A stretch of DNA of 64,000 nt from NCBI GenBank assembly GCA_951813535.1, contig OX638345.1, forward strand, positions 3,960,608-4,024,607, read 5' to 3'. This stretch comes from an uncultured Dehalococcoidia bacterium. GTDB taxonomy: Bacteria; Chloroflexota; Dehalococcoidia; Lucifugimonadales; UBA3495. The notes below the pieces were generated by a model. That model made no database searches and had not been told where the DNA came from. It was given only the letters and a program-made list of their open reading frames with translations. Below are positions 5,362-44,448 of this stretch, in pieces (position 1 is the stretch's first letter; each line of letters starts with the position of its first letter). The position numbers and the translations under genes are program-made.

Positions 5362-5601
5362 ATGGGAACCACAGAGCTGGCCAACAATACGGTTGAAGAC
5401 GCAATTGACAGCATAAATAGGCAAGAGCGGCTAGCCTCGCTGCCGGGCTCTCCCTCGTTGTCACGGGCGATCCATCGACCTGGAGGCGCGGCGCAGGCGG
5501 ACGGAGATGCGGCGGCCCCTCATCAGGGAGGCGAGCTTCACCAACGGAACAGTCCTCTTGGATTACTTGGTGGCGCCTGCGCGGAGCGTCCACCGCCCTG
5601 A
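5362..5601 (+). pseudogene. Frameshifted small gene upstream of 5664
   Basis: From ATG 5362 the first ~37 residues look like a helical protein (VEDAIDSINRQERLASLPG, then SLSRAI). From about 5475 the coding-like sequence continues in the +1 frame as DLEARRRRTEMRR, then PLIREASFTNGTVLLDYLV and APARSVHRP. One indel near 5470-5476 would join them into a single ~80-residue protein. No function is known. It lies about 60 bp upstream of the 122-residue gene on the same strand, so the two may have been a two-gene unit. Confidence 0.4.
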
Positions 5602-5663
5602 CTCCGGTCAGAGGGTTAGCTCCGGACCGAGGAAGACAAGAGTCAGACAGATATGGAGACGCC

Positions 5664-6032
5664 ATGCAGCCCCGCGAGGAACTGTCAGAAATAGCCGAAG
5701 CCCTGTTTCGCAAACATCTGGAACGCGAGATCGGAACCGTGATCCGGTTCGCACCAATCTCGGCAGAAGCCAGCCACGACGACAAAGGGAGACCGACCTT
5801 CCAAGTCACCATCGTCTACGAAGGCGAGATCGAAGAGACCAACGGCAAGAGTGAAGCTGCGGCCCGCAGCTCAGCGGAGAAGGTGATGGAGGAACTCGGA
5901 CTCCACGCCCTGCCCACCTGGGTCTTCGTCCCCGAGCACGAGTACCCGGGCTACCTGAGGAGGCGGGCGCAAAAACCCCCGGCAACGTTGCGCGAGCGAT
6001 GGTCCACTCGTATGCCTGAAAGGCAACAGTGA
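5664..6032 (+). CDS. Hypothetical protein, 122 residues
   Basis: ATG 5664 has GGAG five bases upstream. The protein starts with a helix (ELSEIAEALFRKHLE), followed by a beta-rich core (TVIRFAPISAE, TFQVTIVYEGEIEE), a second helix (EAAARSSAEKVMEEL) and a tail with TWVFVPEHEYPGYLRRR. This alpha-beta-beta-alpha order suggests a small folded domain, but I do not recognise a family. Coding-like composition and the ribosome site support a real gene. It follows the frameshifted small gene at 5362. Confidence 0.55.
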   Translation: MQPREELSEIAEALFRKHLEREIGTVIRFAPISAEASHDDKGRPTFQVTIVYEGEIEETNGKSEAAARSSAEKVMEELGLHALPTWVFVPEHEYPGYLRRRAQKPPATLRERWSTRMPERQQ

Positions 6033-6502
6033 GCTGACGCGCAAGGCCTTGCCATATCGAGGGCATTCATGGAGCCCAAAGCGCGGTTAGGAACAGTATG
6101 GAGATAACAGCATGAACGGACAGTGGCTGCTCTCCGTAGTTATCCCTGCCACGGGCACGGGTGGCTGGGTCTCGCTTTCAGCAGCGCCGCAACGAGAAAC
6201 AGAACTGCTCCGCTGCCGACAATCACGAGGCACGTGGCCCGATCCGTCCAATCGTCTGCATCACAACAACGGAGCAACAGGGTATGAGCGCCGCAGCAGT
6301 CGCAGACGCCGTCCGTGAGGCCATGGCAACCCGCGAAAGGCACGCCGGCACAAAAGGGCTGGGGCGGAAACCTCGCAAGGTAATGCATGAAACTGCCGAG
6401 ACGACATGTTGCCGCCTTGGTGGCCCGACTGCCGTGTCCGATGGAGCGCGGGCACATCACGAACCGCCACTGCCGGATCAACATCAGAGTGGAGACGAGG
6501 GC

Positions 6503-6760
6503 GTGAAACCGTTGCGCCGGACCACCTTCAGCAGGATCTGGACACGATTCAAGGCGCTCCCGACCGGAGCCAAGCTGATGTTGAGCGTCTTCACGTTCTG
6601 CGGAGCCTACAGCATCGCGCAACTCGTCCAGGGCATTACGGCCGGCCAGATCACGTTCGTCATTGGTGGCGTAGCCTTCGGGGCGCTGAGCGTACCACTC
6701 ATCATCATCGCCTGGCAGGGCCGTGAATCGGACCAGGACGATGCGGACCCGCGGTCATGA
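6503..6760 (+). CDS. Small two-TM membrane protein
   Basis: 85 residues from GTG 6503, which has GGAG 8 nt upstream. A basic N-terminus (KPLRRTTFSRIWTRFKALP) is followed by two hydrophobic segments (LMLSVFTFCGAYSIAQLV and ITFVIGGVAFGALSVPLIIIA) and a charged tail ending DDADPRS. Positive-inside topology predicts both ends cytoplasmic. No family recognised. The open frame extends upstream to 6161 but that part is low-complexity and unlike protein. Neighbours give no clue. Confidence 0.5.
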   Translation: MKPLRRTTFSRIWTRFKALPTGAKLMLSVFTFCGAYSIAQLVQGITAGQITFVIGGVAFGALSVPLIIIAWQGRESDQDDADPRS

Positions 6761-6969
6761 CGCACAATATGGGCATCGAACGTAGGAGCGACCACAGGGA
6801 ATACGCCAGCATGGACGAATCGATTGCGCCCACCCCCACCCGTAGACGGCCACCGCGCTGCCGGACGACGGCGTAAATCGAAAGAACGAACTCAACGGTA
6901 CCAGGGCCGTCGGCGGGCATCGAACGCAAGGTAGCTTCGTGAAGGTCTTCTGACGAGGCCCAAATGATA

Positions 6970-8178
6970 ATGAAATTGCTCAGAGGCCTGCTGTCCAACT
7001 CACCCCATTGCTGGTTGGCGCGGCGTTGCTGATTGCTGCCACAGGGGTTGCGTGCGTGAGCGCGACCAACCCGGTGGAAATCCTCTCGGGCGTTTCCGAC
7101 GACCATATTACGTTCGGTCAATCTGCGGTCTTCAGCGGGCCCGCTCAGGATCTGGGCCGGGATATGCGTCTGGGTATCAAGGTTGCGTTCTACGAGGTGA
7201 ATCAGGCGGGCGGCGTTCACGGCCGCCGGTTGGAACTCAAGACCATGGATGACTCTTACGAGACCGACTACGCTTTGCACACCACCAAGAGGCTCATTGA
7301 GAAGGTCGGAGTTTTCGCCCTGATCGGGGCGGTCGGGACGCCCACGACCCGCGTCTCAAGCCCCCTGGCCCACGAAGCCGGCGTACCGTTTCTTGCCCCG
7401 TTCACCGGGGCGGAGTTCCTGCGCGACCCGGGTCTGGACAACGTGGTCAATCTCCGCGCTTCGTATTACCAGGAAACGGAGGAGATGATCGCCCGCTTGA
7501 CCGAGGACTTGGGGGTAACCCGCGTCGCAGTCCTGTACCAGGACGATCCCTTCGGCGCCAACGGTCTGGAGGGTGTGCGGCGGGCTCTGGAACTCCGCGG
7601 GCTGGAACCGGTGGGGGCCTGGGATTACCAACGGAATTCCGGCGTGGTCAGGCAGGCGGCATCCAGCCTGGTTGAGGTCGACCCTGAAGCGGTCGTATTG
7701 ATCGGCACGCAAGACGCGGTGGCCTCCACGATAAAGCTGGTGATCCGCGACATTCGCCCGGTATTCATGACGGTCTCCTTCGTGGGCGGAACCGCCCTGG
7801 CGAAGGCGGTGGAAGGCCATGGGCGCGGTGTTTATGTCACCCAGGTGGTTCCCTTTCCCGAGGACGCCAGCATGGCCGGTGGTTGCCGACTATCACGCCG
7901 CCCTGGCCCGGTACGATCCCAATGAGGAACCGGGATTTGTCTCCCTGGAAGGATACCTGGCCGGTCGCCTCGCCATCTTCGGTCTTGAGGCCTGTGGTCG
8001 TGAGCTCAGCCGCGAATGCTTCATGGACAGCCTGAATACGACAGGCGTCATCGACCTCGACGGATTTCAGCTCAAATTTGGCCCCAACGACAACCAGGGA
8101 TCGGACTCAGTGTTCCTGACCGTGGTCGGTACGGACGGAGAGTACCGCCAGGTCGATAGGTTTGATCGGCAATACTGA
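6970..8178 (+). pseudogene. ABC substrate-binding protein (Leu/Ile/Val-type), two frameshifts
   Basis: A type-1 periplasmic-binding lipoprotein of the branched-chain amino acid/amide family. ATG 6970 begins a signal peptide (MKLLRGLL). A one-base indel near 6990-7000 moves the frame to PLLVGAALLIAATGVAC, an export signal with a lipobox-like cysteine. The core keeps family landmarks: ITFGQSAVFSGPAQDLG, EVNQAGGVHGRRLEL, VFALIGAVGTPTT, VAVLYQDDPFGANG. A second indel near 7875 shifts from PEDASM to PVVADYHAAL, the C-terminal lobe, ending at 8178. No permease or ATPase genes are nearby. It is either a pseudogene or an assembly artefact with two indels. Confidence 0.8.
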
Positions 8179-8813
8179 ATTGCGCCGGCAGGCTGCTGAC
8201 CCCGCAGGCGTTGGCAGACCCAGACTCCGGGAGCGAACCGCGGACGGTGGCATACAACTCCCATGGACACCGTCGCCAGCAGGATGATCAACATCGCCAT
8301 ATTCATTTATCTGCTTTCCCATCGTCTGCTGGAGGACCATCGCCTGGAGGCACTGGTAAGTTCTGCCCAACCGGCAGTCGATGTCGGGGTACGGTGCCGG
8401 CCCAACAGGGACTGCCTCCAGGTTGGGGTAGTCTGAAGAAGCGGGGCGCGGTCTATGGTGCGTTTTCTCCCATGCTATCCGAGTCCAACGTCCGCTGGTT
8501 CAGTTACGCGATCCGGCGCAGGGTCTCGCGCCCAGTTCGGTCGATGTAGGTGAGTATCGGCATGACCCAGCCAACATGCTGATCATGTCAGCGAAATTGA
8601 TAGCGCCGCACTCGGCAGCGGGGTAAGGCCGTTTGCACTTTCTACACTTTCTATAGGAACGTTCGCGATCGCAGCTGTGATGTTCAGATGAGTTATCGGT
8701 TTTGGCCTTTGGCCAGGCTGCCTTGAAACGGTACATTGGTGAAACAGCAACGGTGGGAACGAATGCGGTGCAACCGTGCACAGTGGGTATCTGGTCGGGC
8801 GGAGGTGCCCGCG
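8179..8813. other. Intergenic region, no gene recognised
   Basis: Several short open frames on both strands have no ribosome site. The reverse strand near 8500-8580 reads HVGWVMPILTYIDRTGRETLRR, which is protein-like and may be a small relic, but I cannot name it. Confidence 0.35.
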
Positions 8814-8987
8814 TTGGTGAACCGACCGTTCAGGTTGCTGCGGGACCGGTTCTGGCCCGGAGACTGGGCCGGACCCTATGAGGCGCACTATGCCGCCTTG
8901 GTCTCGATCTGCGTCCGCTGGTGCGTGGCCGCGCTGTGCGTGGCGTCGGAAGGTTTCTCACTGTCGGTCGCTGGCCCCGACATGTAG
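8814..8987 (+). pseudogene. Truncated N-terminus of a sensor kinase like the 3451-4704 gene
   Basis: A TTG start at 8814 has GGAGG 8 nt upstream. It begins a 57-residue peptide with RLLRDRFWPGDWAGPYEAHY, then AALVSICVRWCVAALCVA, then stops. The pattern (aromatic/acidic segment, then HYAALVSICVRW) matches the start of the first membrane helix of the intact kinase here (RYVATVSVRVHW). I infer that it is the 5' end of a paralogous NarL-type kinase cut off by later rearrangement, possibly by the IS end about 90 bp downstream. The rest of the kinase is absent. Confidence 0.45.
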
Positions 8988-9074
8988 GAACTACCGGTGG
9001 CTCCGTACCACCGACTTGTAGATTCCCTCGCCTACGCTGCTTGAAATGCGCAAAGTCCAGCTCAGTGTGATCAA

Positions 9075-9194
9075 TGATTCTTGCTTTGCCATCCTGCTTA
9101 TGCCTCAACCCACGTGGCTGCCTCCGCATTTTCGGCAACATATTATTTGAGGCAACCACTTCCGTTGGGTAACGTTTTAGGTGAGGCAATGCGG
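9075..9194 (-). repeat. Orphan IS end with transposase start codon
   Basis: Closely resembles 23071-23184, the end beside the broken transposase. It holds MAKQES-like start codons near 9092 on the reverse strand, then two tandem binding-site-like units ending TTTGAGGCAAC and GTGAGGCAATGCGG. Everything beyond the first few codons of the transposase is gone. Confidence 0.65.
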
Positions 9195-9340
9195 CCGGCG
9201 AAACCATCAAGTTTGACATGATTTTAGTCGTCACATGGGACCGACGGCGCAGTCCGTGGCGGTTTGCCGGCAATATTAGAGCGTTTTGCGAGATCGAGCC
9301 GTGACCAGCGCTATCCGCCGCCCACACACTGAGAGGAAAA

Positions 9341-12300
9341 TTGGACATCCTGAGCCGCTTGGCCCTGAGCCGCAAGTCGGTGACCATCATGGTGATGGTT
9401 CTCTTCCTTGTCGCCGGTGTCTTTTCTTATGGCCAACTGCAACGGGAACTGTTCCCGGACATCAGTCTGGGCCTCATCCGCGTCATCACCTACGATCAGC
9501 AGAGCGACCCCATCACCGTGGCCGACGAGGTCACGGCCAAGGTGGAGGACGCCATCGCCGGTGTGCCGGACCTGGAGCGATACACGTCCACCTCCACCGG
9601 CAACGAGTCACTGGTGATAGCCAATTTCCCGTCCTCGGCCAACCTGGATGAAGCGGAGGACGAAATCCGCAGCCAGGTCAGCGGGCTCGCTCTGCCGGAC
9701 GGCGCCACCTCGCCCGCCGTGGTGCAGGTGACTTCCGATGCGTTCCCCGTCATGTGGCTCAGCGTGAGCGGCCAGCGGGACATTCCTGCCCTGCAGCGGG
9801 TCGTGGACGATGAGATCATCCCGCGCATGGAGGCCGTCTCGGGCGTTTACGATGTCGAAGTCGCCGGCGGCGTCGAAGAACGGGTCTCCGTCATTGTTGA
9901 CCCAGCCCGCCTGGATGAATACGGACTCACCATCCAGAGTGTGATCAACGCGGTGGGCGGAAACGCCATAGACCTCAACGCCGGCGAGCTCACCCGAGCC
10001 GGGCGTTCCGTGACGCTGCGCACCTATCACGGTTACAGCGACCTGGACGCCATTCGCGACGTGCCGGTCGGCGTTGTGCGCGGCGCTCCTGGCGGAGACA
10101 CGCGGCCCATACTGGTATCCGACGTCGCCGAGGTCGTGGTTGACACCCCCGACGCCAAAATCGTTTCCCGCACCAACGGCCAGGCCAGCCTGTCCCTGTC
10201 GGTCCAGCGAAATCCCGATGGAAACACCATCGCCCTCACCAAGGAACTCCTCGCCGTCATCGACGAACTCGTACTCCCGCCCGATGTCCACGTCGAGATT
10301 CTCTACAACGACGGCCCCGAACTGGAAGCAGAGTTGAACAGCGTAACCAAGCAGGGCGGTCAGGGGTTCGTCATCGCCATGCTGGCGATCTTCCTGTTCC
10401 TGATGCAGCTGCGCCCGTCGGTCCTGCGCGGCATCCTGAACTCCCTGCGGCCCACCCTCATAATTGCTCTCTCCATACCGCTGAGCCTGATGTCAACCAT
10501 TCTCATAATGGCGGTCATGGACTGGACGCTCAACTTCATGAGCCTGGCCGGTTTGGCCATCGCTGTGGGCCGCATCGCTGACGACAGCATCGTCGTACTG
10601 GAAAACACCTACCGCCACGTCAATGCCGGAGAACCGCGCGCCAGCGCCGCCCTGCGGGGCGCCCAGGAAGTCGGCGCGGCCATCGTCGGCTCCACCCTGA
10701 CCACCGTGGCCGTTTTCCTGCCGCTGGCGTTCATCCCCGGCACCGTGGGCCAGTTTTTCCTGCCCTTTGCCCAGACGGTCTGCGTTTCCCTCGTCGCCTC
10801 CACTTTCGTTGCCCTCACCGCGGTGCCGGCGCTGGGCTCCCTGCTGCTGCGCGAGGGTGATCTGGTGGCAGAAGACGCCGCCGAGGACACCTGGCTGCAG
10901 CGCGGCTACACCCCCGTCCTCCGCTGGACGCTGGGCCACCGCCTCATCACCGTGACCGGTTGCCTGGCCGCCGTGGCCGGCAGCCTCTATCTGGTGACAT
11001 TCCTGCCCGTCACGTTGTTCTCGGCCGGCGATGCCGCGGCACTCCGCATCGACGTCAGAATGGCGGAGAACACCGGCCCCGGCCGGATGTTTCAGGAGGT
11101 CCGCGGTATTGAGACCATCCTGGACGGCTACATTGAACGGGGCTACATCACCTCTTACCAGGTGACCATGGGCGCCGCCAGCGGGGGCTCGGCCGGCGGC
11201 TCCAGGGGAAGCGGCTACGACATCGCCGGCTTTTCTCTCGCACTAAGCGAAGACTTCCCGCAGAGCGCCGTCGCCGAGCTGCGCGCCGCCCTGCCCAACA
11301 ACGAAAACGTTGAGACCCAGCTATTCGTTGATTCCTCCGGCCCGCCCCAGGCCGGCCTGCAGGTGAACGTCACCGGCAGCGATTTTGAAGCTGTGAAAGG
11401 CGCCGCCCAGAACCTGCTGGCTCGCATCGAACCCATTGACGGCCTCGCCAACCTCAAGACCAACCTCGGCGACGCCAAGGAAGAACTCACCTTCGTCGTT
11501 GACCCCGCCGAAGCCGCCAACTACGGGCTCACCTCCCGCATGGTGGCCGGTCAGGTGCGCACCTGGGTCCACGGCATGGACGTGGCCGACGTCAACCTGG
11601 AGGGCGACGTCCATGAGGTGGTGATTCGGGGACGAAAAGCAAGCGTTGACGAAATCGCCGAGCTGCAGCGCCTTTCCATCGGTGGCCCCGCCGGCGTCGT
11701 CCGTCTCGGCGTTGTCAGCGAAGTCAAAACCACCATCGGCCCCTCGGTCGTTACCCGCTACAATGGCGACCGCTCGGTGCTCATCACCGGCACCTTTGAG
11801 GGCCAGGACGCTCAGGACATCGCCACCCGAGTGGACCGCATAATCCGGGAGACTCCCCTGCCCCCGGGCGTCAGCGTGGAGCAGGGCGGTCTGGCCAGCG
11901 ACATCGAGGAGCAGTTCGCCAGTGTCTATCTGGCAATGATCATCGGCGTTTCGATGGTCTATCTGGTCATGGTGGCCACCATGGGTTCCCTGCGCGACCC
12001 GCTTATCGTGGTCCTCAGCATGCCCCTGGCCATTGTCGGCGCGATGGTTGCCCTGACCGTCACCGGACGGGCCCTGAGCCTGCCCTCGATGATGGGGTTC
12101 CTGTTCCTCATCGGCATCGTCGTCACCAATGCTATCGTCCTCCTCACATTTGTCGCCCAGCTGCGGGAACAGGGCTACGGCGCGCTGGACGCCCTCGTTG
12201 AGGCTGGACGAACCCGCCTGAGGCCCATCCTGATGACCGCTTTCACCACCATCCTGGCCCTCTTCCCATTGGCCTTGAGCGGCTCCAGCGGACTGGTCGG

Positions 12301-12511
12301 CGCCGAACTGGCCACGGTAGTCATCGGCGGGCTGATCAGCTCCACCTTCCTCACCCTGGTCGCCGTCCCCGTGACCTACCTCCTCCTATACGAAACCATT
12401 CCCAACCTGCCGGGCCGGATCATCCGCTGGGTTACCCGCCATCGGGCTTCCCAACCAACCCCGGACGTCGACGAATCCCCTTCTGAACCGACCCCGGACG
12501 ACGGGCAGTGA
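9341..12511 (+). CDS. RND efflux permease (AcrB/HAE-like)
   Basis: 1056 residues from TTG 9341, with GAGAGG just upstream. It has the RND layout: TM1, a large porter loop, TM2-6, TM7, a second loop and TM8-12. The proton-relay aspartates of TM4 are D414/D415 in GRIADDSIVVLENTYRH. The TM10 lysine of AcrB (K940) aligns with threonine in IGIVVTNAIVLL, so relay chemistry may differ. It is a proton-driven exporter of drugs, lipids or metals. No adaptor (MFP) or outer-membrane channel gene is adjacent, which fits RND pumps of Chloroflexota. The downstream 37-residue membrane protein may be a partner. Confidence 0.93.
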   Translation: MDILSRLALSRKSVTIMVMVLFLVAGVFSYGQLQRELFPDISLGLIRVITYDQQSDPITVADEVTAKVEDAIAGVPDLERYTSTSTGNESLVIANFPSSANLDEAEDEIRSQVSGLALPDGATSPAVVQVTSDAFPVMWLSVSGQRDIPALQRVVDDEIIPRMEAVSGVYDVEVAGGVEERVSVIVDPARLDEYGLTIQSVINAVGGNAIDLNAGELTRAGRSVTLRTYHGYSDLDAIRDVPVGVVRGAPGGDTRPILVSDVAEVVVDTPDAKIVSRTNGQASLSLSVQRNPDGNTIALTKELLAVIDELVLPPDVHVEILYNDGPELEAELNSVTKQGGQGFVIAMLAIFLFLMQLRPSVLRGILNSLRPTLIIALSIPLSLMSTILIMAVMDWTLNFMSLAGLAIAVGRIADDSIVVLENTYRHVNAGEPRASAALRGAQEVGAAIVGSTLTTVAVFLPLAFIPGTVGQFFLPFAQTVCVSLVASTFVALTAVPALGSLLLREGDLVAEDAAEDTWLQRGYTPVLRWTLGHRLITVTGCLAAVAGSLYLVTFLPVTLFSAGDAAALRIDVRMAENTGPGRMFQEVRGIETILDGYIERGYITSYQVTMGAASGGSAGGSRGSGYDIAGFSLALSEDFPQSAVAELRAALPNNENVETQLFVDSSGPPQAGLQVNVTGSDFEAVKGAAQNLLARIEPIDGLANLKTNLGDAKEELTFVVDPAEAANYGLTSRMVAGQVRTWVHGMDVADVNLEGDVHEVVIRGRKASVDEIAELQRLSIGGPAGVVRLGVVSEVKTTIGPSVVTRYNGDRSVLITGTFEGQDAQDIATRVDRIIRETPLPPGVSVEQGGLASDIEEQFASVYLAMIIGVSMVYLVMVATMGSLRDPLIVVLSMPLAIVGAMVALTVTGRALSLPSMMGFLFLIGIVVTNAIVLLTFVAQLREQGYGALDALVEAGRTRLRPILMTAFTTILALFPLALSGSSGLVGAELATVVIGGLISSTFLTLVAVPVTYLLLYETIPNLPGRIIRWVTRHRASQPTPDVDESPSEPTPDDGQ

Positions 12512-12602
12512 AATCCGACGAAGCAACACAGAGGCTTTTTATGATGGTTCTCAGGGATGTCTTGCGACTAGCTTTGCGAGCAGTTTGCCAGGAGGCCAGC
12601 CT

Positions 12603-12716
12603 ATGAAGAAGCATTGGCGTAAAGCGCTGGTAATAGTTGCTGTATTGGTCGGAATTTGGGGCCTGCTCATGTGGTTTGCCAATTCCTGGTCTCTCGGCGG
12701 AGGCTTCGGTTTTTAG
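12603..12716 (+). CDS. 37-residue single-TM microprotein
   Basis: ATG 12603 has a perfect AGGAGG 7 nt upstream. The product is a basic start (MKKHWRKA), one hydrophobic helix (LVIVAVLVGIWGLLMWFA) and a glycine-rich tail (WSLGGGFGF). It lies 91 bp after the RND gene on the same strand. A 21-codon frame (12541-12606) overlaps its start as ATGA, so translation may be coupled. Small membrane proteins next to RND pumps (such as AcrZ in E. coli) modulate them. That role here is inference from position only. Confidence 0.6.
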   Translation: MKKHWRKALVIVAVLVGIWGLLMWFANSWSLGGGFGF

Positions 12717-12960
12717 ACCTACGCTGACCGAGAGACAGGCCCGCTACCTCTGGCCGGACACGCCTTCCTGATTGCCCGTCGCCAAGCGACAGGATGCCGA
12801 GCAGCGTCGCCGTCATCACGGCCTCGAACCGCGACTTCGCGTTCAGCTTCCGCCGCAGGTTGGCGACGTGGGAACGCACGGTGTGGAGCGTGACCTCCAG
12901 CTCAGCGGCGATGTAGTCGTTCTCCCAACCCAGAGCCACCCAGACGGCCGGTGCAGGCGT
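12667..12960 (-). pseudogene. LuxR-type HTH fragment
   Basis: On the reverse strand, after a TAA near 12961, the frame reads VWVALGWENDYIAAELE, then VTLHTVRSHVANLRRKLNAK. This is the second half of a LuxR/NarL helix-turn-helix with the recognition helix intact. A non-conserved tail follows. The receiver domain and the start of the HTH are missing. It is a 5'-truncated regulator of a different subgroup from the 2763 gene. Confidence 0.65.
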
Positions 12961-13088
12961 TTAGGTGTACACACGGTAGCTACTTTCCGAGTCTGCACAC
13001 AGACCCAGCAGCGGCCGATAAATCACGAACCGGGGCCCCTGCTGCTGTTCACTAAAACGCGAACCCAGTTCCCCGACAATTCTCCGGT

Positions 13089-14705
13089 TCAGTGCGTCGC
13101 CACCTTCTGTCCAGGGTCGGCCGGAACAACCGGATGTCCGAGATCTGCAGTGTTGCCGGCGCTGTCGTAAACGCCCGCTCCCTCCGCCCTGAGACTATTG
13201 GCGGAGATGCCGACCCCGTCAATGTCGGTGTCGCCGTCCTGCACCACGTAGTGGAAGACCGACGAGTAACCGTACGTCAGGCTAGGCGGCGCTTCGGCCG
13301 TCGCCTGGCGAGCCACCCCACCGATGTCGAGATTGAGGTGCAGCGCTCCCTTGTGCGCCACCCTCTCGTCAAACGTAACCTCCACGGCGATGCTCTCACG
13401 GTCAGCATAGGCATCGCCATTGGCCGGCCGAGACGTGAACCTGATTGACGACACACTCGGCGAGCTCGAGTCAACCTTGTGCTCCGCCTGGTGGCCAGTA
13501 CCCAGGTAGTATGGGTTGCGCTCCACGTCTGTGCCCTTGGCCTTGATGGCGCCACCACCCGCGAAGCCGCTCTCTTCGGTGCCCAGCACGATCCCCACAC
13601 CCTCGGCGTCCATGTCGCCAGGACGCACGGTGTAGCCGAAGATGAGCGTGTCCGTCCCAGAACCACGAAGGTAGCCGGCCTCTCTGATCACGCCATCCCA
13701 GTTGTAGTCCACGACACCCAGATGAAGCTCCACCGACACGTCGCCATCCACGACAACGTCCGTGTCGAACCTCATCAAGACCTCGATGACCTCGTTGGCG
13801 CGGTACGCGGTCCACCCATCCGAAGGTGAGGAGATTATCTGTGTCTCCTGCACATAGGGCCGCCCGTCAACCTTCTGCTTCCAGCCACCGGTCACGCCTT
13901 CGTGACCATACTCGACCGGCACGTCGGTTCCCTCGGCAAAGATGTCGCCGCCGAAGCCGTAGGCGGGGCTACGGTCATCGCCCGTGGCGGCAGCGGCCAC
14001 CCTGAACCCGTCGCCGTCAAAATCTTCAGGCTGCACCCGGTAGCGGAAGATCAGGGACCTAGTCCCGGAGCCAGCCTCGTAGCTGGCGCCGCGCCAGACG
14101 CTGTCGTCCTCGTCGCCGAGGTACAGGGCGAGATTCGCGTCGGCGCCAGCATCGACCTTCTGGTCGAAGTCCACCGCAATGTCGATGGCGTCGCCGTTGT
14201 GGTAGGCATACTGGTCGACGGGACTCGAAGCGATGCTCACATGGACGATCTCCGGCGCGTCGTCGTCTTCAATCGTCACGACGCAGTGATGCCACACGTC
14301 GTCGTCCCAGAAGCCGATGGCAAAGGTCTCATCGTGCTCCGGCAGCGTGTCCTCCTTGGTGACGATGGGAGCGCGCAACGTACTCTCACCGCCGCTGGAC
14401 TGCACCTTGTAGCCGTGGTACTCCACGTAGTCGTCGCCATCGGCGGTGTGGTACCGATTATCGGTGAAGAAGAACGCCGACTTGATTTTGTGACCGGAAC
14501 GGCGCACTCCGATTGAACCGGTGTTCCCCTCCTCGATGGGGTCGGGACAAACCGCGTACACACCGCCGTGGTCAGCATGAGCCTCACTGGGCATGCCCAA
14601 CGCGACGGCCACGACGGCAAGCGTCACGAATGCAGCCAAGGCAGCGAGTGGGAAGGTGTTCGTAATGCCGAACCATCGTCGAATACCCCGTCTCTTCGTC
14701 TCCAT
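13089..14705 (-). CDS. Secreted Calx-beta-type protein with three beta repeats
   Basis: 538 residues from ATG 14705 (GGGGG about 6 nt upstream). Residues about 14-38 are a signal peptide (FPLAALAAFVTLAVVAVALG, then SEAHA). Residues about 40-135 form a Calx-beta-like domain ending CVVTIEDDDAPEI. Three ~110-residue beta-sandwich repeats follow, each with a strand like IASSP..., an acidic DFDGDGF or DMDAEGVGI calcium-like segment, and RGSGTDTLIFGY or its variant. Two larger proteins here (23600-26647, 32727-34625) share this architecture. It is probably a surface or secreted adhesion/matrix protein. It has no C-terminal anchor or sorting motif. Confidence 0.72.
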   Translation of the reverse strand: METKRRGIRRWFGITNTFPLAALAAFVTLAVVAVALGMPSEAHADHGGVYAVCPDPIEEGNTGSIGVRRSGHKIKSAFFFTDNRYHTADGDDYVEYHGYKVQSSGGESTLRAPIVTKEDTLPEHDETFAIGFWDDDVWHHCVVTIEDDDAPEIVHVSIASSPVDQYAYHNGDAIDIAVDFDQKVDAGADANLALYLGDEDDSVWRGASYEAGSGTRSLIFRYRVQPEDFDGDGFRVAAAATGDDRSPAYGFGGDIFAEGTDVPVEYGHEGVTGGWKQKVDGRPYVQETQIISSPSDGWTAYRANEVIEVLMRFDTDVVVDGDVSVELHLGVVDYNWDGVIREAGYLRGSGTDTLIFGYTVRPGDMDAEGVGIVLGTEESGFAGGGAIKAKGTDVERNPYYLGTGHQAEHKVDSSSPSVSSIRFTSRPANGDAYADRESIAVEVTFDERVAHKGALHLNLDIGGVARQATAEAPPSLTYGYSSVFHYVVQDGDTDIDGVGISANSLRAEGAGVYDSAGNTADLGHPVVPADPGQKVATH

Positions 14706-14797
14706 ATCGGGCCCCCTGTCCAAGTAAGTTATGCTCTTAATTACGTCGACGGGTACGCCTCGGATTGACGGAGCACAGGACTGCAGGCGGATCTGTG

Positions 14798-15066
14798 CGT
14801 GCGAGTTACTACGTTGACCGCCGGATCAACAGCCACGATCCCAGCGGCTCCAACAGGTTCAGCATCCAGCCGGACTTCAGTGCCATCTACAGCGCCGTGC
14901 GCCACCACGCGACCGGCTGGTACTCAACAGGCATAACGCCCTCGTCACCGACGTGAAGACCCGCCAGGAACGTCCCTGGCACCGTTACCAGCTCATGATC
15001 TACCAGTACGCCCTGCCGCGGGCACTGCCCGAGCACTACGACGCGCGCATCGCCGGCACGGTCTCA
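14798..15066 (+). pseudogene. PD-(D/E)XK nuclease relic
   Basis: Coding-like sequence in two frames: SYYVDRRINSHDP, then SIQPDFSAIYSAVRHH in one frame, and [32 protein letters not shown] in the next. The D...DVKT pattern followed by a [11 protein letters not shown] helix matches the catalytic core of Cas4/RecB-like PD-(D/E)XK nucleases. One frameshift near 14925-14938 and missing ends make it a pseudogene. The original protein may have been a DNA repair or defence nuclease. Confidence 0.55.
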
Positions 15067-15081
15067 ACTACGCACACGGCG

Positions 15082-15223
15082 AGAACCTACAGCTCATGCG
15101 ACGCGGCTCAGGCAGCAGGAGAATCCCGTGCAGGGCAGCAAGGGCGGCGGCAGGGGCTTCCCGAAGTGGATGGTTCCCAGCGCCCGAGATGGCGACGGCG
15201 ACGGCGTGGTTTGCGAAAGGTAA
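15082..15223 (+). pseudogene. Excalibur calcium-binding domain relic
   Basis: [14 protein letters not shown] in one frame continues after a one-base shift as [20 protein letters not shown], then [11 protein letters not shown] and a stop at 15221. The paired cysteines and the DxDxDG loop before VCE define the Excalibur domain, found at the C-terminus of secreted nucleases and surface proteins. The upstream partner is lost. It lies immediately after the PD-(D/E)XK relic but need not belong to it. Confidence 0.6.
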
Positions 15224-15252
15224 ACACCTCACTCACGTTGGGCTACGATGAA

Positions 15253-15278
15253 GAAGTGCCGCATTTCTGCGGCACTTC
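15253..15278. terminator. 10-bp perfect hairpin
   Basis: GAAGTGCCGC, loop ATTTCT, GCGGCACTTC. It lies just downstream of the Excalibur relic. There is no T-run, so it may be a Rho-independent-like stop of low strength or another structural element. Confidence 0.45.
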
Positions 15279-15375
15279 CGAACGACAGGACGCCGGTCAG
15301 CATTACTCATCCGCGCGAAGCCTGGGGTCACCGTGGGCCCAAGGCCGCAACACCACTGTGTAGTGCCAATTTAGG

Positions 15376-15702
15376 TCACGACGACATGTTGTCGAAGAAC
15401 CGGCCCGCGGGATCGACCATCACGTAGCTGCCGGTCATCAGGTCGTTGTTCTCCGGCACCACGGTGATTCCCAGCTCTTCCACGCGCCGGTTGCGAGCAA
15501 CACAGCGATTGAATTGCTCTGATGTGATGGCCAGTTCCGGGACTGAGCCATCGTTCTGAGCGCCCACGGGCAGCACCTGGAGCAATTTCCAGCGTTCTGA
15601 GTGTGCCATCTCAATGAATTCGGTTTCTCTGATGGCCTTGAGCTGATGCAGAAGCGAAGCGGCTTCCTTGGTAAGAATCCCCGCATTATTTGCCCCACCC
15701 AT
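15376..15702 (-). pseudogene. C-terminal fragment of a prokaryotic viperin-like protein
   Basis: The reverse-strand frame reads TEFIEMAHSERWKLLQVLPV, then a GAQNDG stretch, ITSEQFNRCVARNRR, then GITVVPENNDLMTGSYVMVD and PAGRFFDN. This matches the C-terminal part of viperins, including the RWKxxQ block, the V-P-E-x-N-x-x-M-x-x-SY segment and D-x-x-x-RF. Viperins are radical SAM enzymes making ddh-nucleotides that terminate viral RNA. The N-terminal ~200 residues with the CxxxCxxC cluster and the last ~40 residues are missing, so it is dead. It lies 20 bp beyond the 3' end of the 1752-residue gene. Confidence 0.72.
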
Positions 15703-15724: not shown

Positions 15725-18700
15725 CTACTCAGACATTGACAACTTATAGTTGCCGGTCAAATTTTCTAGAGACGTCACTACTATGAAATAGGTTCCGTCC
15801 CGTCCAGGTGTATAGGTGGCCACGGAGGTCTGCTCGCCTGAGTTCAACTCGCCAGTCTCGACCTTCTTGCCGCTGCCGTCGAATATCAGGACCTTTAAGT
15901 ACGCTAGCGGCCGTGCGCCATCCCCTCCAGATGCCTCAATTGTATAGGTCGTTCCGCCTGTGAGGTTGGTCCTGAACCAGTCGGTGTCGCCTCTGTAGTC
16001 TATTCTGGCGTCCTTGTTTTCTCCAGAGGCGATTGAGTCGTGGGTGCTGGTGTTGTCGGGTTGGCAATCATCCTCCACCTCCATTACCAAGAGGTCGTAT
16101 GAGCCAGTGTCGTCCTCGTAGGCACTCACTGAAATGTAGTAAACGGCCTCGGACTTGGCATAGTAGTGAATCCGGGCTTGACGCTCACGCACAGACGGGA
16201 CCGCCAGTGTGCCCTGGATGTAGTCCACGGTGCCATCGTCAATGTACAACCACAAGAGCGGCTCCGATAGAGTCCGTAAATTGCCGGTGGTCTTGCTCTT
16301 CACCACAATGCGGTACATCTGGTCCGCTTCCAGGATGACCTTGATCCAGTCGACGTCGCCGGGTTCTCCGATTGCGCCCCGGAAGTGGTACCTGCCTCTC
16401 TTACCTGAGCTCTTGGACGAGAGGAGCACCTCCGCGGCGGCGCTTGTAGTTGAATCGGCCGTGGCTTCGTCCTCGTAGCTAAAGCTCAGTCGATAGTCTC
16501 CGGTTGCGCCGGTATCGCCGCCCACCACGATGTAATAGGTGGCTTTGGTGGCCTTGCCCTGCCCCTCGGGTTTGGGTTCGTGATAGACCTCCGAGGAGTT
16601 CGTGCCTCGACCACCAGGGAAGTCTGCCTTTTCTCCAACCGGGATGGCGGTCCCGCGAACCCGCTTGAACAGCCCCATCAGCTTGGGGCCTTTGAGAGTC
16701 CCGTCGCCGTTGTTGGTACCTTCCAGTTCGAACCGGTAGAGTTCGTCTGTTACAAGGTCCACCGCCAATACGTCAAATAGCTCTCCCTTGACGATGTCGC
16801 CAGTTGCAGAGCCGCCGACTTGTACTTTCGGTGCGGAGTCGGCGTTCACCCGGGAGATGACCAATGTGTGTTCCCGCGTGTCGCCATTCTGGGCGGTGAC
16901 CGTTATGGTCATCTTGGCGGCCAGGTGGGGAATCGCCAGCTGATGCCCGTCAGCGACCGCGTCGTTATCGTCGCCACCAAGGCTTGCCGAGGACTCTAGC
17001 TGTGCGGCGGTCGCGGAGACCGTTACCTCGGTGGTTGTGCTATCCACGGTGGCATACCAGCCGCCGTCCAGTGTAGAACCGACCGCTTCCTCGCCGTCAA
17101 CGAGGACCTTGCGCAGGTCGGCGCTGTCTGAGACAGGCATGTTGTAGGAGTACACCTTCTTGGCCACTGTGTCGGACACCCACATGGTCTCACCGTCGGA
17201 CCAGATCCCGCGGGCGCCGCCCAGATCGCCATTCCGGATTGTGATGAAGTCTTTTTCGGGGTCGGGCTCCCCGGTGAAAGCGTTCAGGGCTCGCAACCTG
17301 TCGTTGGCGCTATCCACCACCCAGATGGTCGCGCCATCAGACCAGACTCCAAGGCCATTGATCCCATCGGTTCCATGTAGAGCGTCAAAGTCTTCGTCCT
17401 CGGCTCGTGTCCCAGTGCTGAGGTCGTAGGCAACCAGCTCGCCGTTTCTCTGCGAAAGCCATGCCGTATCGCCGTCCGACCAGACACCGTAGTAGGTGGA
17501 CAACTCCCCTTCTGACAGGTTGAGGTCTTTGCTCCCGTCCCGGTCGCCGGTCTCGGTGTCATATGCGTAGAGCTTTCCGTCGTGTACGTCGTGCACCAGC
17601 ATGGTCGTGCCGTAAACCCACATACCTCCCGGCGAATCCTGCGCTGGGTCAAGAGTGATGTCCAGGTCCGGTTTGTGTGCCTTTGTTCTGATATCGTAGG
17701 AGTACAGCTTCAGGTCAACTTCGTCGGCCACCCACATGGTGGAGCCGTCAGACGCAAGGCCGCCGGGGGATCGATCCCCGGTCATTGTCCGAGTGTCAAA
17801 GTCGTCATAGGCTTTCCAGCCGAAGGGGTCAGGGTCCCCCCTGTTCATGCTTACCGTGTAGTTCTCCGTGGTGACCCCGTCCTGGGCCGTTACGGTTATG
17901 GTGACGATGTTGGCGCCGGTCTCCAGGTCCACCTGATACCCACCCAGGTTGGGAACTGCGTCTTCGGGGCTGTATGAAACGGATGCAAAAGCCTGCCTTG
18001 GGTATGCCTGCACTGAAGCCTGGCTGACCTTGCCGCCTAAGCCCAGTGAATAGCTGTGCCTATCCGGCTCAAAACCGAGCAGTATCCGGCCACCAGCGAT
18101 TAGGGAGCCCAGTTCCGCATTGCTGGAAGCACGCATGTTATAGGAGTAGATTTTGCCGTCCTCGCTGTCCGTCACCCACATGGTCTCGCCATCGGACCAG
18201 ATGTCGCCCGGGCTTGTGTTGCCGGCTGCGTTCAGCCTCTGAAAGTCGTACCCCTGGTTGACCTCTGATTCCGGGGAGTCGTAGGCAGAGATGACATTTT
18301 TGCTTGGGTTCACCACCCACATGGTCACGCCGTCGGACCAGATGCCCGCGGTGTGGTCCTGTCCCGACGGCTCAAAGCCGATGTAATCGAGCGCGGGAAC
18401 CCTGTTGCCGGAATCAAAGTCGTAGGCTTCCAACTTAGCGTATCTTGAATTCATCAAAGTTACGTTGCCATTGGAAAGCCAGATGGTTTCCCCGTTGGAC
18501 CAGACGCCGTAGTAGTCACCTTCATCGTCGCCAAATACTCCGAAATCTCTTGCCTGGTCCCTGGCCCCGGTCCCCAGATTGTAGGCGTAAAGCTTCCTGT
18601 CCGCGCTGTCCAGGACCCACATAGTCGCGTCGTCCGACCAGATACCCTTCGCATCGCCGTTTTCTGCGTCTAGGCCAATGTCCCGGTCGGATTCACGTTC

Positions 18701-20983
18701 CCCGGTTTCCAGGTTGTAGGCATACAGGTTTAGGTCATCGCCGCCGGATGCCCAGATAAGAGTGCCGTTGGACCAGATGCCTTGCGGAAACTCGCTGCCT
18801 GAGCCCTGCAAACCCTCCAGGTCGGGCGCCACGGCCCAATCGAACTGAGCCGTGGACGCGCGGTTGATGACCAGGGTGTGGCTCGTGATGGTTGTTCCGT
18901 CCTGGGCGGTGACCTCAATGGTAACGCTGTTGCTGCCAACTCGGAGGTCAACCTGGTGGCCTTCGACGGTATCGTCAGCGTCCGTGGCGTCAAAGGAAAC
19001 CGTGCCCTTGAAGTGCCTAGGTGTGGCGTCCAGGGTGACCTGCCCCGTCGAATTCCCTACACCGTGCCGGAATTCGGTGGCGCCCGGGTCGACTCCGTGG
19101 ACAGCAACGCCGTCTACAGTGATGGAGCCCAGGTCTGTATTGTCGGACACCCGCATGTTGTAGGAGTAGACCTTGCCATCTTCGGTGTCCGATACCCACA
19201 ATGTCTCGCCGTCGCCCCAGATGGCCCCGGGGTTGTCATTCCCGGCGCCGTTCAGTGTCGTGTAGTGCACAGCCTGATTCAGGTCAATTTCCCTATCGGG
19301 GGACTGGAAACCCCGGACCCCGCCTCTTCCGGCGTCCACAACCAGCATGGTCACTCCGTCAAACCAGATTCCCGCCACTTGGTCAATCCCTGATCCCTCC
19401 AAATGAACATAGCGGAGTGCGGGGACTGTTTCGCCACTATCAAAATCGAATGCCTCTATGACGGGGCCGGTATTATCAGAGAGCCAAAGCGTCTCGCCGT
19501 CGGACCAGATGTCATAGTAAACGGCGCCCGCATCTCCCAGGTCGGTGAAGTCCTTTGCTGAATCCCGATCCCCGGTTTGCAGATCGTAGGCGTAGAGAGC
19601 CCTGTCGGCCGCGTCGACCACCCACATGGTCTCGCCGTTGGACCAGATACCCTTCGGGTCGGAGTTATCCAACGCGAGGCCAATGTCCCTGTCGGGCTCG
19701 CGTTCCCCAGTTGCCAGGACGTATGCATACAGCTGGCGATAGTCTCCCCCGGACACCCAGATGTAAGTGTCATCAGACCAGATGCCACCGGGAAATGCGC
19801 TTCCGGATCCCAGCAGACCCTCCAGGTCTTTCAAAACGGTCCAGCCGGTCTCGACGAGGGACCCGCGATTGACGCTAACGGAGTAGTCCTGAGTGGTGTT
19901 CCCGTCCTGGGCGGTGATGGTGAACATGATCGAGTTGCGGCCATGGTTCACGTCCACCTGGTGGCCGTCGGCGGTGTCGTCGGCGTCAATGGACTGGAGG
20001 CCCCTGAAAGTGACGGTGGCCTGTGGATGCGTAGGTTCAACCACCAGGGCAACCCTGGAGACCTCGTTCGCCACTCCGAAAGAGTATTCAGTGGAGCCCG
20101 GGAACAATATGGATGCAGGGCTGCCGTTCACGGTGATCGAACTGAGAGTGGCATCCGACGAGGCCTGCTGTTGACGTGCACTCTGGCTGCCCCCAATTTC
20201 GCCCTCTTTGGTCGGCTCTTCGACGACCTCCGGCGCGGCTGTGCTCTCGGCGTTGGCGTAGCTTGACCGCTCACTGAGGCCCGCCGGGTTCCTGGCCTTC
20301 ACACGGTAGACGTACCGAGTCTGCGGAGAGACTGAGGTGTCGGTGTACTCCGTATCCGAAGTGCCTGTGTCATCCTCTATGACAACGAATTCCCAGGAGC
20401 CTAGTCCGTCTCTGTAGGTATCGCCGTCCCTGGAACGGCGCAGCACCTGATAGCCGTCGATGCTGTCGTCCTGTGGGTCGTCCCATTGGATGGTGATTGA
20501 GTCATGAGAAGCGGAAGAGACGGTCAACCCTGTGGGACGCTCTGCGACTCCAGGGGTTTCCGCGTTGGCGTAGCTCGATCGCTCGCCGAGGCCCGCGGAA
20601 TTCCTGGCTTTCACCCGGTACACGTACCTTGTGCCAGGGGTAACCGTCGTGTCGGTGTACTCGGTTCCCGCACTCTCGGTGTCATCCTCGATGGCCACGA
20701 ATTCCCGAGCACCCAACCCGTCTCCATAGGTATCGCCGTCCCGGGAACGGCGCAGAACCTGGTAGTCTGTGATGCTGTCGTCCTGCGGATCGTCCCATGA
20801 AATGCTTACCGAGTGGTAGCCCTCCAGGGTAACTGCAAGCCCCGTAGGCGGGAGCGGCGGCGAGGTGCCCTGGGCCAGGGCAGTGCCGGAGACACTTGGA
20901 CTGAGTCCAATTGCAAGCGTTAAACAAAAGGCCGTCAGCACGATGAGGCTTCGGACGGAACACTTGGATACACTCAGGGACAA
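15725..20983 (-). CDS. Giant secreted modular protein (FN3, cadherin-like, propeller repeats)
   Basis: 1752 residues from TTG 20983, supported by GGAGG 7 nt upstream. A signal peptide (about 1-38) precedes two near-identical fibronectin III domains (about 43-140 and 147-245, each with SWDDPQDD or QWDDPQDD and RYVYRVKARN). Next come four cadherin-like beta-sandwich modules (each with GHQVD or GYQVD and ITAQDG/VTAQDG). Between them are three blocks of about six repeats built on GIWSDGETMWV and LYAYDL, which look like beta-propellers. The C-terminus has three PPC-like domains (GDVDWIKV, DTDWFRTNL). It is probably exported and involved in adhesion or host/particle contact. Confidence 0.8.
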   Translation of the reverse strand: MSLSVSKCSVRSLIVLTAFCLTLAIGLSPSVSGTALAQGTSPPLPPTGLAVTLEGYHSVSISWDDPQDDSITDYQVLRRSRDGDTYGDGLGAREFVAIEDDTESAGTEYTDTTVTPGTRYVYRVKARNSAGLGERSSYANAETPGVAERPTGLTVSSASHDSITIQWDDPQDDSIDGYQVLRRSRDGDTYRDGLGSWEFVVIEDDTGTSDTEYTDTSVSPQTRYVYRVKARNPAGLSERSSYANAESTAAPEVVEEPTKEGEIGGSQSARQQQASSDATLSSITVNGSPASILFPGSTEYSFGVANEVSRVALVVEPTHPQATVTFRGLQSIDADDTADGHQVDVNHGRNSIMFTITAQDGNTTQDYSVSVNRGSLVETGWTVLKDLEGLLGSGSAFPGGIWSDDTYIWVSGGDYRQLYAYVLATGEREPDRDIGLALDNSDPKGIWSNGETMWVVDAADRALYAYDLQTGDRDSAKDFTDLGDAGAVYYDIWSDGETLWLSDNTGPVIEAFDFDSGETVPALRYVHLEGSGIDQVAGIWFDGVTMLVVDAGRGGVRGFQSPDREIDLNQAVHYTTLNGAGNDNPGAIWGDGETLWVSDTEDGKVYSYNMRVSDNTDLGSITVDGVAVHGVDPGATEFRHGVGNSTGQVTLDATPRHFKGTVSFDATDADDTVEGHQVDLRVGSNSVTIEVTAQDGTTITSHTLVINRASTAQFDWAVAPDLEGLQGSGSEFPQGIWSNGTLIWASGGDDLNLYAYNLETGERESDRDIGLDAENGDAKGIWSDDATMWVLDSADRKLYAYNLGTGARDQARDFGVFGDDEGDYYGVWSNGETIWLSNGNVTLMNSRYAKLEAYDFDSGNRVPALDYIGFEPSGQDHTAGIWSDGVTMWVVNPSKNVISAYDSPESEVNQGYDFQRLNAAGNTSPGDIWSDGETMWVTDSEDGKIYSYNMRASSNAELGSLIAGGRILLGFEPDRHSYSLGLGGKVSQASVQAYPRQAFASVSYSPEDAVPNLGGYQVDLETGANIVTITVTAQDGVTTENYTVSMNRGDPDPFGWKAYDDFDTRTMTGDRSPGGLASDGSTMWVADEVDLKLYSYDIRTKAHKPDLDITLDPAQDSPGGMWVYGTTMLVHDVHDGKLYAYDTETGDRDGSKDLNLSEGELSTYYGVWSDGDTAWLSQRNGELVAYDLSTGTRAEDEDFDALHGTDGINGLGVWSDGATIWVVDSANDRLRALNAFTGEPDPEKDFITIRNGDLGGARGIWSDGETMWVSDTVAKKVYSYNMPVSDSADLRKVLVDGEEAVGSTLDGGWYATVDSTTTEVTVSATAAQLESSASLGGDDNDAVADGHQLAIPHLAAKMTITVTAQNGDTREHTLVISRVNADSAPKVQVGGSATGDIVKGELFDVLAVDLVTDELYRFELEGTNNGDGTLKGPKLMGLFKRVRGTAIPVGEKADFPGGRGTNSSEVYHEPKPEGQGKATKATYYIVVGGDTGATGDYRLSFSYEDEATADSTTSAAAEVLLSSKSSGKRGRYHFRGAIGEPGDVDWIKVILEADQMYRIVVKSKTTGNLRTLSEPLLWLYIDDGTVDYIQGTLAVPSVRERQARIHYYAKSEAVYYISVSAYEDDTGSYDLLVMEVEDDCQPDNTSTHDSIASGENKDARIDYRGDTDWFRTNLTGGTTYTIEASGGDGARPLAYLKVLIFDGSGKKVETGELNSGEQTSVATYTPGRDGTYFIVVTSLENLTGNYKLSMSE

Positions 20984-37735: not shown

Positions 37736-38490
37736 TCATGGGGCCGATGCCGCCAGGTTGCGAACGAGGTTGTAGGCGAACCAGCCGTCGCCGTTGAGGA
37801 AGACCGCCAGCCGCTCCGGCTGGTCCGGCTGCGACACCGCGGCTCCGATGCCGTCCCGGTAGGGCTCCCATCGGCGTACCTCTCCGTAGGACAGGGTGAG
37901 GGCGGCGGGCAAGCCGCGCAGCAGTAGGCCGTGGCCGGTCAGCGCCATCCGGCCGGTGGCGACGGTATCCCAGCCCTCGCCGGGCGCCTCACGACCCATG
38001 AATAGCTGCGGCGGGTAGTAGGGCGGGGTCCGGCCGGCCGGCGCCACGCCCGCGATGGTCGCGGCTTGATCCGCTGGCAGAGGGCCCAGGCGGTACTCCG
38101 CGTCGTCAAAGAGCCATATTGGTTGCTCCGATCCCTCCAGGCCCAGGGAGGCCACAACGGCGTTGGAAAAGGTCATCCGGTGGGGTATCAGGCCGGTGGC
38201 CGACGCCGCGATGGCCGCCCCCTGGATGAACTGGCGCACCATCCCGTGGCGGTCCAGCTGATCATCGTCTAGGTCGAAGTGGAGAGCGTAGCGCAGCAGG
38301 GCGGCCTCCCGATCTAGATCGATGCCCGTGTTGCCTAGCAGCCGCAGCACCGCGTGTTCCCACGTTCTCAACAGCAGCGTGTGGCCAGCAACGTCGGTGA
38401 GGCCGGAACGCTCCAACAACCTCGATAACCGCTCCAGTCGCGGCGGCTGGTTGCGCGTCGCCGGTGCGGCCGCCACCGCCGCGGTCAGCA
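37736..38490 (-). pseudogene. 5'-truncated protein of unknown function
   Basis: Reverse strand: a helical part (RLERLSRLLERSGLTDVAGH, LLLRTWEHAVLRLL), a middle with PIWLFDDAEYRLGPLPADQA, and a C-terminal beta domain (RMALTGHGLLLRGLPAALTL, VRRWEPYRDGIGAAVSQPDQ, FLNGDGWFAYNLVRNLA). The beta domain looks like a PH-like fold in which a promoter-less LTxxRLL strand recurs. The 5' end is lost where the helicase relic begins, at about 38490-38504, so this is a recombination or deletion junction. Confidence 0.45.
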
Positions 38491-41822: not shown

Positions 41823-42316
41823 TTCCTTTCCCGCAATCAAGGCCGCCCCTGCAATCAGCAGAATTGACCACCGGGCCATCAACCGGTATTGCGGATTTCC
41901 CACCATGGGAAGGCCGAGCCGATACCGAACGCCAGCCAGGCAGCCGACCATCCGTCGGCGCCTGGCTTTATTGATGAATTGTCTGGTGTGGTCGGATCTT
42001 CCGCCACCGCATGACCTGCGGAAGGCGTGAGAGTGCTGACGGTAATCAGGACACCGACCGTGGCGTTCGACCGGACGGAATGCGCACGTCGGGCGTGGAC
42101 CTGGCGGGCGGAATCCCCGCACGAACCGGTTCACGTAATGGCCCTATTGTGCGAATCACGGCGGGTATCAATAAAATAGCGAGACACGGCACGCCGGCAC
42201 GGTGTACGGGACAACCCGGAACTCCGATGCGTCGCAGCAAGTCTTTCCGACGCGGGTGATCAGCCATCTCGCATTTTGTGGCTGAGGCACCATCGATGCT
42301 TGCTGCAAGCACATGT
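41823..42316. other. Intergenic region, no gene recognised
   Basis: About 500 bp of frame-disrupted sequence between the leader-like peptide and an orphan IS end. Nothing recognised. Confidence 0.45.
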
Positions 42317-42343
42317 CGGTAATATTTGATTTGAGGCAATGCG
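42317..42343 (-). repeat. Orphan IS end
   Basis: CGGTAATATTTGATTTGAGG followed by CAATGCG, matching the 23123-23184 end. The outer side points at the TPR gene. No transposase sequence adjoins it. Confidence 0.6.
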
Positions 42344-42454
42344 CCTTTGTTGATGGGCTTCAGGCTTGCGCGGTAAAACTGACCGACACCACCCAAGCCG
42401 ATCCTCTCCACCCAGTAAATGTAAATCCCACCTTGGTTTCGGTTTAGGCTCGTG

Positions 42455-43897
42455 ATGATTGGCATTTGTGACATTCGAGACAGCCGACGGTGGCTCCATC
42501 GCGCGCTACTGGCGCTGACGGTTGCGGTCCTGATGCTGGGGATCGGCTGCGCGGCGGACGAAGTGGACCGCCTCATCAACGAGGGAGATGGTCACGTCAA
42601 GGCAGGGGGTTTTGACCAAGCAATCGCGGCCTATGACTCCGCGATTCAACTGGACCAGGAACGATTCGACGCGTACTACAATCGAGGCATCGCTTTCCAC
42701 AGCAAGGGGGAGTATGACCGGGCCATCCAGAGCTTCGACATGGCCATCGGGCTCGACCCTGAATATCCAGCAGCGTTTTATTACCGCGGCACCGCTTACC
42801 ACCGGAAGGGGGAGTATGACCGGGCTATCAAGAGCTACGATATGGCCATACGGCTCGACCCGAGTGTAGCCTTAGCCTACAACAGCCGGGGCATCGCCTA
42901 CTACGACATGGGGCAGTACGACCGCGCCATAGAGGACCAGGACGAGGCCATCCGGCTCGACCCGGGAGTCGCCAAATTCTACATCAACCGGGGCAACGTT
43001 TACCACGACATGGGTGCGTTTGCCCGGGCCATAGAGGACTTGGATGTGGCTATCCAGCTCGACCCAGAGGTCGCCGCTGCCTACAACAATCGGGGCAACG
43101 CCTACGGCGAAATTGGAGAGCACGACCAGGCCATGCAGGATCTGAGCACGGCCATACGACTCGATCCGGAACTGGCCTTAGCCTACAACAATCGGGGCAC
43201 CGTACACGACGATGAAGGCCAATATGACCAGGCTATCGCGGACTACAACACAGCCATTCGGCTCAACTCCCAATATGCCCGGGCGCACTACAACCGCGGC
43301 AACGTGCATCTCCGCATGGGCAACGATGAACTGGCAATGAGGGATTACAATCAAGCCATCCTTCTCAATCCAGAATTTGCAGCTGCGTATTACAACCGTG
43401 GACTTGTGCGCGGACGGCAGGGCGAGCACGAGAGGGCCATAAAGGACTACGACACGGCCATCCGGCTCAACCCGGAATATGCCGAAGCGTATTACAACCG
43501 GGGCAACTCCCACATAAGACTTGGGAGGCACGAGCGAGCTATCGATGACTACGACGCGGCAATCCGGCTCGATCCGCAGGACGCCAGCGCCTACAACAAC
43601 CGGGGCAACGCCTACCGCGAAATTGGAGAATCGGACCGGGCAATGGAGGACTATGACACTGCGATACGTCTTGATCCAGACCACGCCTCTGCATACAACA
43701 ACCGAGGCGTCGCCCATCGTAAATCAGGCGAGTATGACCGGGCGATAACTGACTACGACGCGGCAATCCGGCTCAATTCGGAATACGCGCAGGCATACTG
43801 CAATCGCAGCCATGCCCTGAGGGCATCAGGCGACGAAGACAAGGCCGATCAGGACCGCAACGCCGCCCTGGCGCTGGGTTACGATTGCAAACGGTGA
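42455..43897 (+). CDS. TPR-repeat lipoprotein
   Basis: 480 residues from ATG 42455 (a GTG at 42452 is also possible; the ribosome site is weak). An N-terminal signal (LLALTVAVLMLGIGC) has a lipobox-like LGIGC, predicting a lipid-anchored extracytoplasmic protein. The rest is 13 consecutive 34-residue TPR units of the form AYNNRG-A-G-YDRAI-DYD-AIRLDP, with little divergence, which suggests recent internal duplication. TPR arrays bind protein partners. It is intact and ends 3 nt before the NadB fragment. This is another eukaryote-like repeat protein in the window. Confidence 0.85.
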   Translation: MIGICDIRDSRRWLHRALLALTVAVLMLGIGCAADEVDRLINEGDGHVKAGGFDQAIAAYDSAIQLDQERFDAYYNRGIAFHSKGEYDRAIQSFDMAIGLDPEYPAAFYYRGTAYHRKGEYDRAIKSYDMAIRLDPSVALAYNSRGIAYYDMGQYDRAIEDQDEAIRLDPGVAKFYINRGNVYHDMGAFARAIEDLDVAIQLDPEVAAAYNNRGNAYGEIGEHDQAMQDLSTAIRLDPELALAYNNRGTVHDDEGQYDQAIADYNTAIRLNSQYARAHYNRGNVHLRMGNDELAMRDYNQAILLNPEFAAAYYNRGLVRGRQGEHERAIKDYDTAIRLNPEYAEAYYNRGNSHIRLGRHERAIDDYDAAIRLDPQDASAYNNRGNAYREIGESDRAMEDYDTAIRLDPDHASAYNNRGVAHRKSGEYDRAITDYDAAIRLNSEYAQAYCNRSHALRASGDEDKADQDRNAALALGYDCKR

Positions 43898-43900
43898 GCG

Positions 43901-44323: not shown

Positions 44324-44448
44324 CGACCTCACGGATGTCCAGGAATCGGTCTTGCAAAGCATGTAGACGGAGCCAACGGGGATTTATCCGTCAGGGGCAG
44401 GGTGCGGTGACACAGTTACCAAATTCACGAGGAGGAGACCACAGCGGC

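What the first reader, a model, noticed from the sequence alone, without database searches (positions are those of the whole stretch)
15376..15702. Remnant of a prokaryotic viperin antiviral gene
The reverse-strand fragment carries the viperin C-terminal signatures RWKLLQVLP, VPENNDLMTGSYVMVD and RFFDN in the right order and spacing. The radical SAM half is gone. It shows that an antiviral ddh-nucleotide synthase once resided here, beside nuclease relics, so this may be a decayed defence locus.
Basis: partly seen in the sequence, partly recalled or inferred. Interest (0 to 1): 0.7.

Follow-up and report, generated by a model that had tools for sequence, protein, structure and literature searches.

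The report
Broken fragment of a viperin gene

Summary
Window 15382-15624 (-) encodes 81 residues that match prokaryotic viperin profiles strongly (NCBIfam 1.2e-20, PADLOC pVip-kinase 2.1e-23) and viperins of related Chloroflexota (SAR202/Dehalococcoidia) at 53-70% identity. They correspond to columns 175-255 of a 292-column profile of relatives. Both ends are missing: the radical-SAM half with CxxxCxxC, and also the C-terminal ~37 residues. No remaining viperin sequence was found beside the fragment, in the window or elsewhere in the 4.38-Mb genome. It is a pseudogene fragment that cannot be expected to make ddh-nucleotides. The 'decayed defence locus' reading is not supported. In congener G001 the neighbouring Cas4-like nuclease relic sits in synteny without any viperin. 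The 3' edge of the fragment (15383/15384) is the end of a separate DNA block found at another G001 locus, and 22.9 kb here (15068-37945), fragment included, is replaced by ~1.5 kb in G001. The scrap therefore lies in a mosaic of gene pieces and may have arrived already truncated. Viperins are patchy in the order (11 of 250 genomes) and other copies look broken. Side lead: several intact viperins here are followed directly by an HTH/TPR protein instead of a kinase.

The parts
15382..15624 (-). Viperin (prokaryotic, radical-SAM nucleotide dehydratase) pseudogene fragment, 81 codons, profile columns 175-255 of 292
15376..15702 (-). Chance-extended ORF (108 aa) around the fragment; its first 26 residues are not viperin
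15068..15383 (+). DNA block from another source: excalibur-like gene end (about 15079-15222) and a hairpin (about 15253-15278); 82% identical to places in G001 contig C12, ending exactly at the viperin edge
   Evidence: the excalibur reading is from the motif [10 protein letters not shown], not from a profile search
14875..15068 (+). Relic of a Cas4-like PD-(D/E)XK nuclease gene, also present as a relic in synteny in G001
12931..15068 (.). Block syntenic with G001 contig C49 (86.5% DNA identity); synteny breaks at 15068 and resumes at 37945
15725..20983 (-). Intact ORF, 1752 aa, fibronectin III and cadherin-like domains; next gene on the 5' side of the fragment; no viperin link

Best explanation
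The feature is a non-functional pseudogene fragment of a prokaryotic viperin gene of the type found patchily in SAR202/Dehalococcoidia Chloroflexota. Recombination cut it at both ends and left it in a mosaic intergenic stretch made of pieces of unrelated genes (a Cas4-like nuclease relic, an excalibur-like gene end, the viperin piece). The intact ancestor would have bound SAM and a [4Fe-4S] cluster and converted a nucleoside triphosphate to its ddh form (family knowledge). The fragment keeps the RWK segment and the PENN...GSYVMVD segment but has neither the cluster motif nor the C-terminal tail, so it is expected to make nothing. Shown: identity, extent, both truncations, absence of other viperin pieces, the mosaic junctions. 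Inferred: loss of function, recombination as the cause, arrival from elsewhere rather than decay in place.
For: Profile hits; relatives at 53-70% identity all align only to residues about 26-29 to 105-107; no further viperin signal in any frame on either side, in the window or in the genome beyond generic radical-SAM hits; dN/dS about 0.2 against the G011 copy, so it descends from a gene under constraint and decayed late; the block edge at 15383 and the synteny break at 15068; none of the viperin flank genes of relatives occur beside it, the only other window matches being generic repeat proteins and one weak hit elsewhere.
Against: The ORF is open for 126 codons between stops with coding-like base composition (GC3 0.70, GC2 0.40), so expression of a small protein cannot be excluded from sequence. 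The direction of the 22.9-kb difference from G001 (gain here or loss there) is not settled. The tree of the 81-residue segment does not resolve the source.
Confidence: 0.88

Rival explanations
1. A complete viperin defence gene stood here and decayed in place, the first reader's reading (a sub-case of the pseudogene explanation).
For: Congeners G003 and G011 carry viperins, and one in G003 lies next to a Druantia-type DruE and near a DndB gene; other viperins in the order look broken too (G011 frameshift, G101 split copies), so decay of such genes is common here.
Against: G001, the congener sharing this synteny, has no viperin; the neighbouring relics come from unrelated gene families; both ends are sharp and no leftover of the other 210 residues or of a partner gene is nearby.
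Confidence: 0.25
2. A retained, translated mini-protein (108 aa) made from the viperin nucleotide-binding part, with a new role.
For: Intact ORF with an ATG start and coding-like composition; dN/dS below 1.
Against: No other genome among the congeners has the ORF with these ends; dN/dS mostly reflects the constraint on intact ancestors; the N-terminal 26 residues are unlike anything aligned here.
Confidence: 0.03
3. A non-viperin radical-SAM protein or a chance match.
For: None beyond a 0.031 hit to another radical-SAM family.
Against: Viperin models lead by many orders of magnitude in two profile libraries, and viperins are the only significant PDB hits.
Confidence: 0.005

Closest known systems
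Prokaryotic viperin (pVip; NF038283, PADLOC PDLC02903-02905), also named SAND, as in Bernheim et al. 2021 cited in PMC9642334
   Same: 81 aligned residues including RWK(L/V)(L/F)Q, QND, VPENND and TGSYVMVDPAGRFFDN
   Different: Only about 28% of the protein is left; the CxxxCxxC radical-SAM part and the C-terminal tail are absent
Intact viperins of the same order: G076/L070, G248/L069, G003, G015, G040, G057; also JAPPLM010000041 (L015)
   Same: 53-70% identity over the fragment
   Different: They are full length, about 290 residues, several followed by an HTH/TPR gene; the fragment has none of these neighbours
G011 contig C80 viperin (same genus)
   Same: 84% DNA identity over 116 bp; also broken, by one frameshift
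   Different: Nearly full length; lies on a 4.2-kb draft contig, so its frameshift may be an assembly error

Membership tests
Prokaryotic viperin (sequence family) | Best profile match to viperin above other radical-SAM families | tested here: met
Prokaryotic viperin (functional enzyme) | CxxxCxxC motif for the [4Fe-4S] cluster (PMC9642334) | tested here: not met
   the N-terminal 174 profile columns are absent from the fragment and from the six-frame window
Prokaryotic viperin (functional enzyme) | Complete C-terminal region after GRFFDN (about 37 residues) | tested here: not met
   stop just past the last matched residue; no signal downstream in three frames
Prokaryotic viperin (functional enzyme) | Curated NCBIfam cut-off of 180 bits | tested here: not met
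   73.9 bits
Prokaryotic viperin (functional enzyme) | Production of ddh-nucleotides and phage protection | not testable with these tools
   needs a bench assay; not expected given the missing parts
Defence island | Intact or decayed defence genes clustered around it | tested here: not met
   the annotated neighbours are an RND transporter, two large secreted-type ORFs and transposase-like remains; not every small ORF was annotated; the only nuclease relic is independent of viperin

The most novel reading that the evidence does not exclude
The 108-aa ORF is a domesticated mini-viperin that keeps part of the nucleotide-binding half and is translated, for example as a nucleotide-analogue sensor or a decoy.
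Probability: 0.02. Interest if true: 0.6.

Novelty: new member of a known kind. Interest (0 to 1): 0.17.

Why it matters
It is modest evidence that viperins come and go in marine SAR202-type Chloroflexota: few genomes carry them, and in several the gene is broken. The fragment itself has no expected function. The more useful by-product is the repeated pairing of intact viperins with a downstream HTH/TPR protein, which could be a sensor or regulator of the enzyme.

Tried and rejected
Looked for the missing N- and C-terminal parts in all frames next to the fragment (not above shuffles), in the window with a purpose-built profile and filters off, and in the genome: nothing, apart from generic radical-SAM proteins. 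Two tblastn extensions beyond the 81 residues (L027 upstream, L021 through the stop) were checked and judged chance. Looked for relics of the HTH/TPR partner: only generic TPR matches at 42-44 kb. Looked for viral relatives: none. Tested whether the conserved stretch just beyond the fragment (15325-15383) is a dispersed repeat: only single copies in four of 14 genomes by pattern, and no Rfam match. A tree of the 81-residue segment did not resolve the origin.

Full report
Observation. Profile searches place residues 27-107 in viperin: NF038283 viperin_w_prok E 1.2e-20, eukaryotic viperin 5e-5, next radical-SAM family 0.031; PADLOC pVip-kinase 2.1e-23 and two pVip models; all PDB hits with E<0.01 are viperins or viperin-like. 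Pfam gives nothing, as expected since the Radical_SAM domain, which intact relatives do hit, is missing here.

Extent. Relatives from 60 related genomes and from GTDB contigs align only from residue 26-29 to 105-107 of the ORF. Against a profile of ten relatives the fragment covers columns 175-255 of 292 at 123 bits. The sequence on both sides, in all three frames, aligns to the missing viperin parts no better than shuffles. The genome holds no other viperin, only generic radical-SAM proteins. So the N-terminal 174 columns with CxxxCxxC and about 37 C-terminal residues are gone. An enzyme needs the cluster motif (PMC9642334), so no activity is expected (inference).

Age and source. The fragment is 53-70% identical to intact viperins, with 84% DNA identity over 116 bp to a same-genus copy, G011. 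dN about 0.25 and dS about 1.1 against that copy show descent from a constrained gene; the ratio does not show present constraint. The tree of 81 residues is unresolved. One relative, G057, lies in the same order as the window genome, and its match position and contig length (2,517,953) agree with OY282365.1, an uncultured Dehalococcoidia; other hits are named Chloroflexota and SAR202, with one Streptomyces.

Surroundings. G001 (same genus) shares window 5580-9060 (96%), 12931-15068 (86.5%), 37945-38348 and 42089-44772 in order on one contig. Between 15068 and 37945 it has only about 1.5 kb, so 22.9 kb here, with the viperin scrap near its left end, is extra here or lost there. Block 15092-15383 matches another G001 contig at 82%, and the match ends at 15383, at the edge of the fragment. 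The stretch is thus a mosaic: nuclease relic, excalibur-like gene end, viperin piece, each from a different context. The nuclease relic is Cas4-like PD-(D/E)XK: its full-length paralogs score PF12705 and Cas4, and at own-genome loci L033 and L034 they lie with DNA methylase and DUF1643 genes. The relic is present in G001 without viperin, so it is not evidence of a shared defence locus.

Distribution. Viperin occurs in 11 of 250 genomes of the order at E<=1e-40, including congeners G003 (two copies) and G011, but not in G001. The G011 gene has a frameshift and the two G101 copies are in pieces; draft assembly errors could explain these. One G003 copy is beside a DruE of Druantia and near a DndB, so intact copies can lie in defence surroundings.

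Side finding. In G003, G040, G248, G076, G101 and L015 the viperin is followed on the same strand, within about 65 bp, by an HTH and/or TPR protein of roughly 550-880 aa. Among 250 genomes 11 have viperin, 13 the partner and 6 both. No paper in the held library joins SAR202 and viperin; that is a limited library. Whether this partner has been described elsewhere was not established.

Verdict. Real, correctly named at the family level, but an ordinary pseudogene fragment; the defence-locus story is not supported by synteny.

Noticed in passing
L019:6137-7813 (-), L024:5962-7671 (-), L015:8414-10054 (+), L070, L095: A conserved HTH/TPR protein lies directly downstream of intact viperins in at least six loci of related Chloroflexota, in place of the nucleotide kinase expected from known pVip operons; possible sensor or regulator.
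   Followed up: partly
window 9060-12931: The RND transporter gene region is absent from the syntenic place in congener G001, a second insertion/deletion difference in the same stretch.
   Followed up: no
window 15325-15383: A short stretch (...GTGTAGTGCCAATTTAGGTCAC) is conserved at unrelated loci in G001, G004, G012 and G013; not an Rfam family; nature unknown.
   Followed up: partly
L020:2587-3951 and 8666-14470: G003 has an intact viperin between a DndB-like gene and a full-length Druantia DruE (1934 aa).
   Followed up: no
L022:1578-2512 (-); G101 contigs C30 and C183: Other viperin copies in the order appear broken by a frameshift or split in pieces; real decay or draft-assembly error.
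   Followed up: partly
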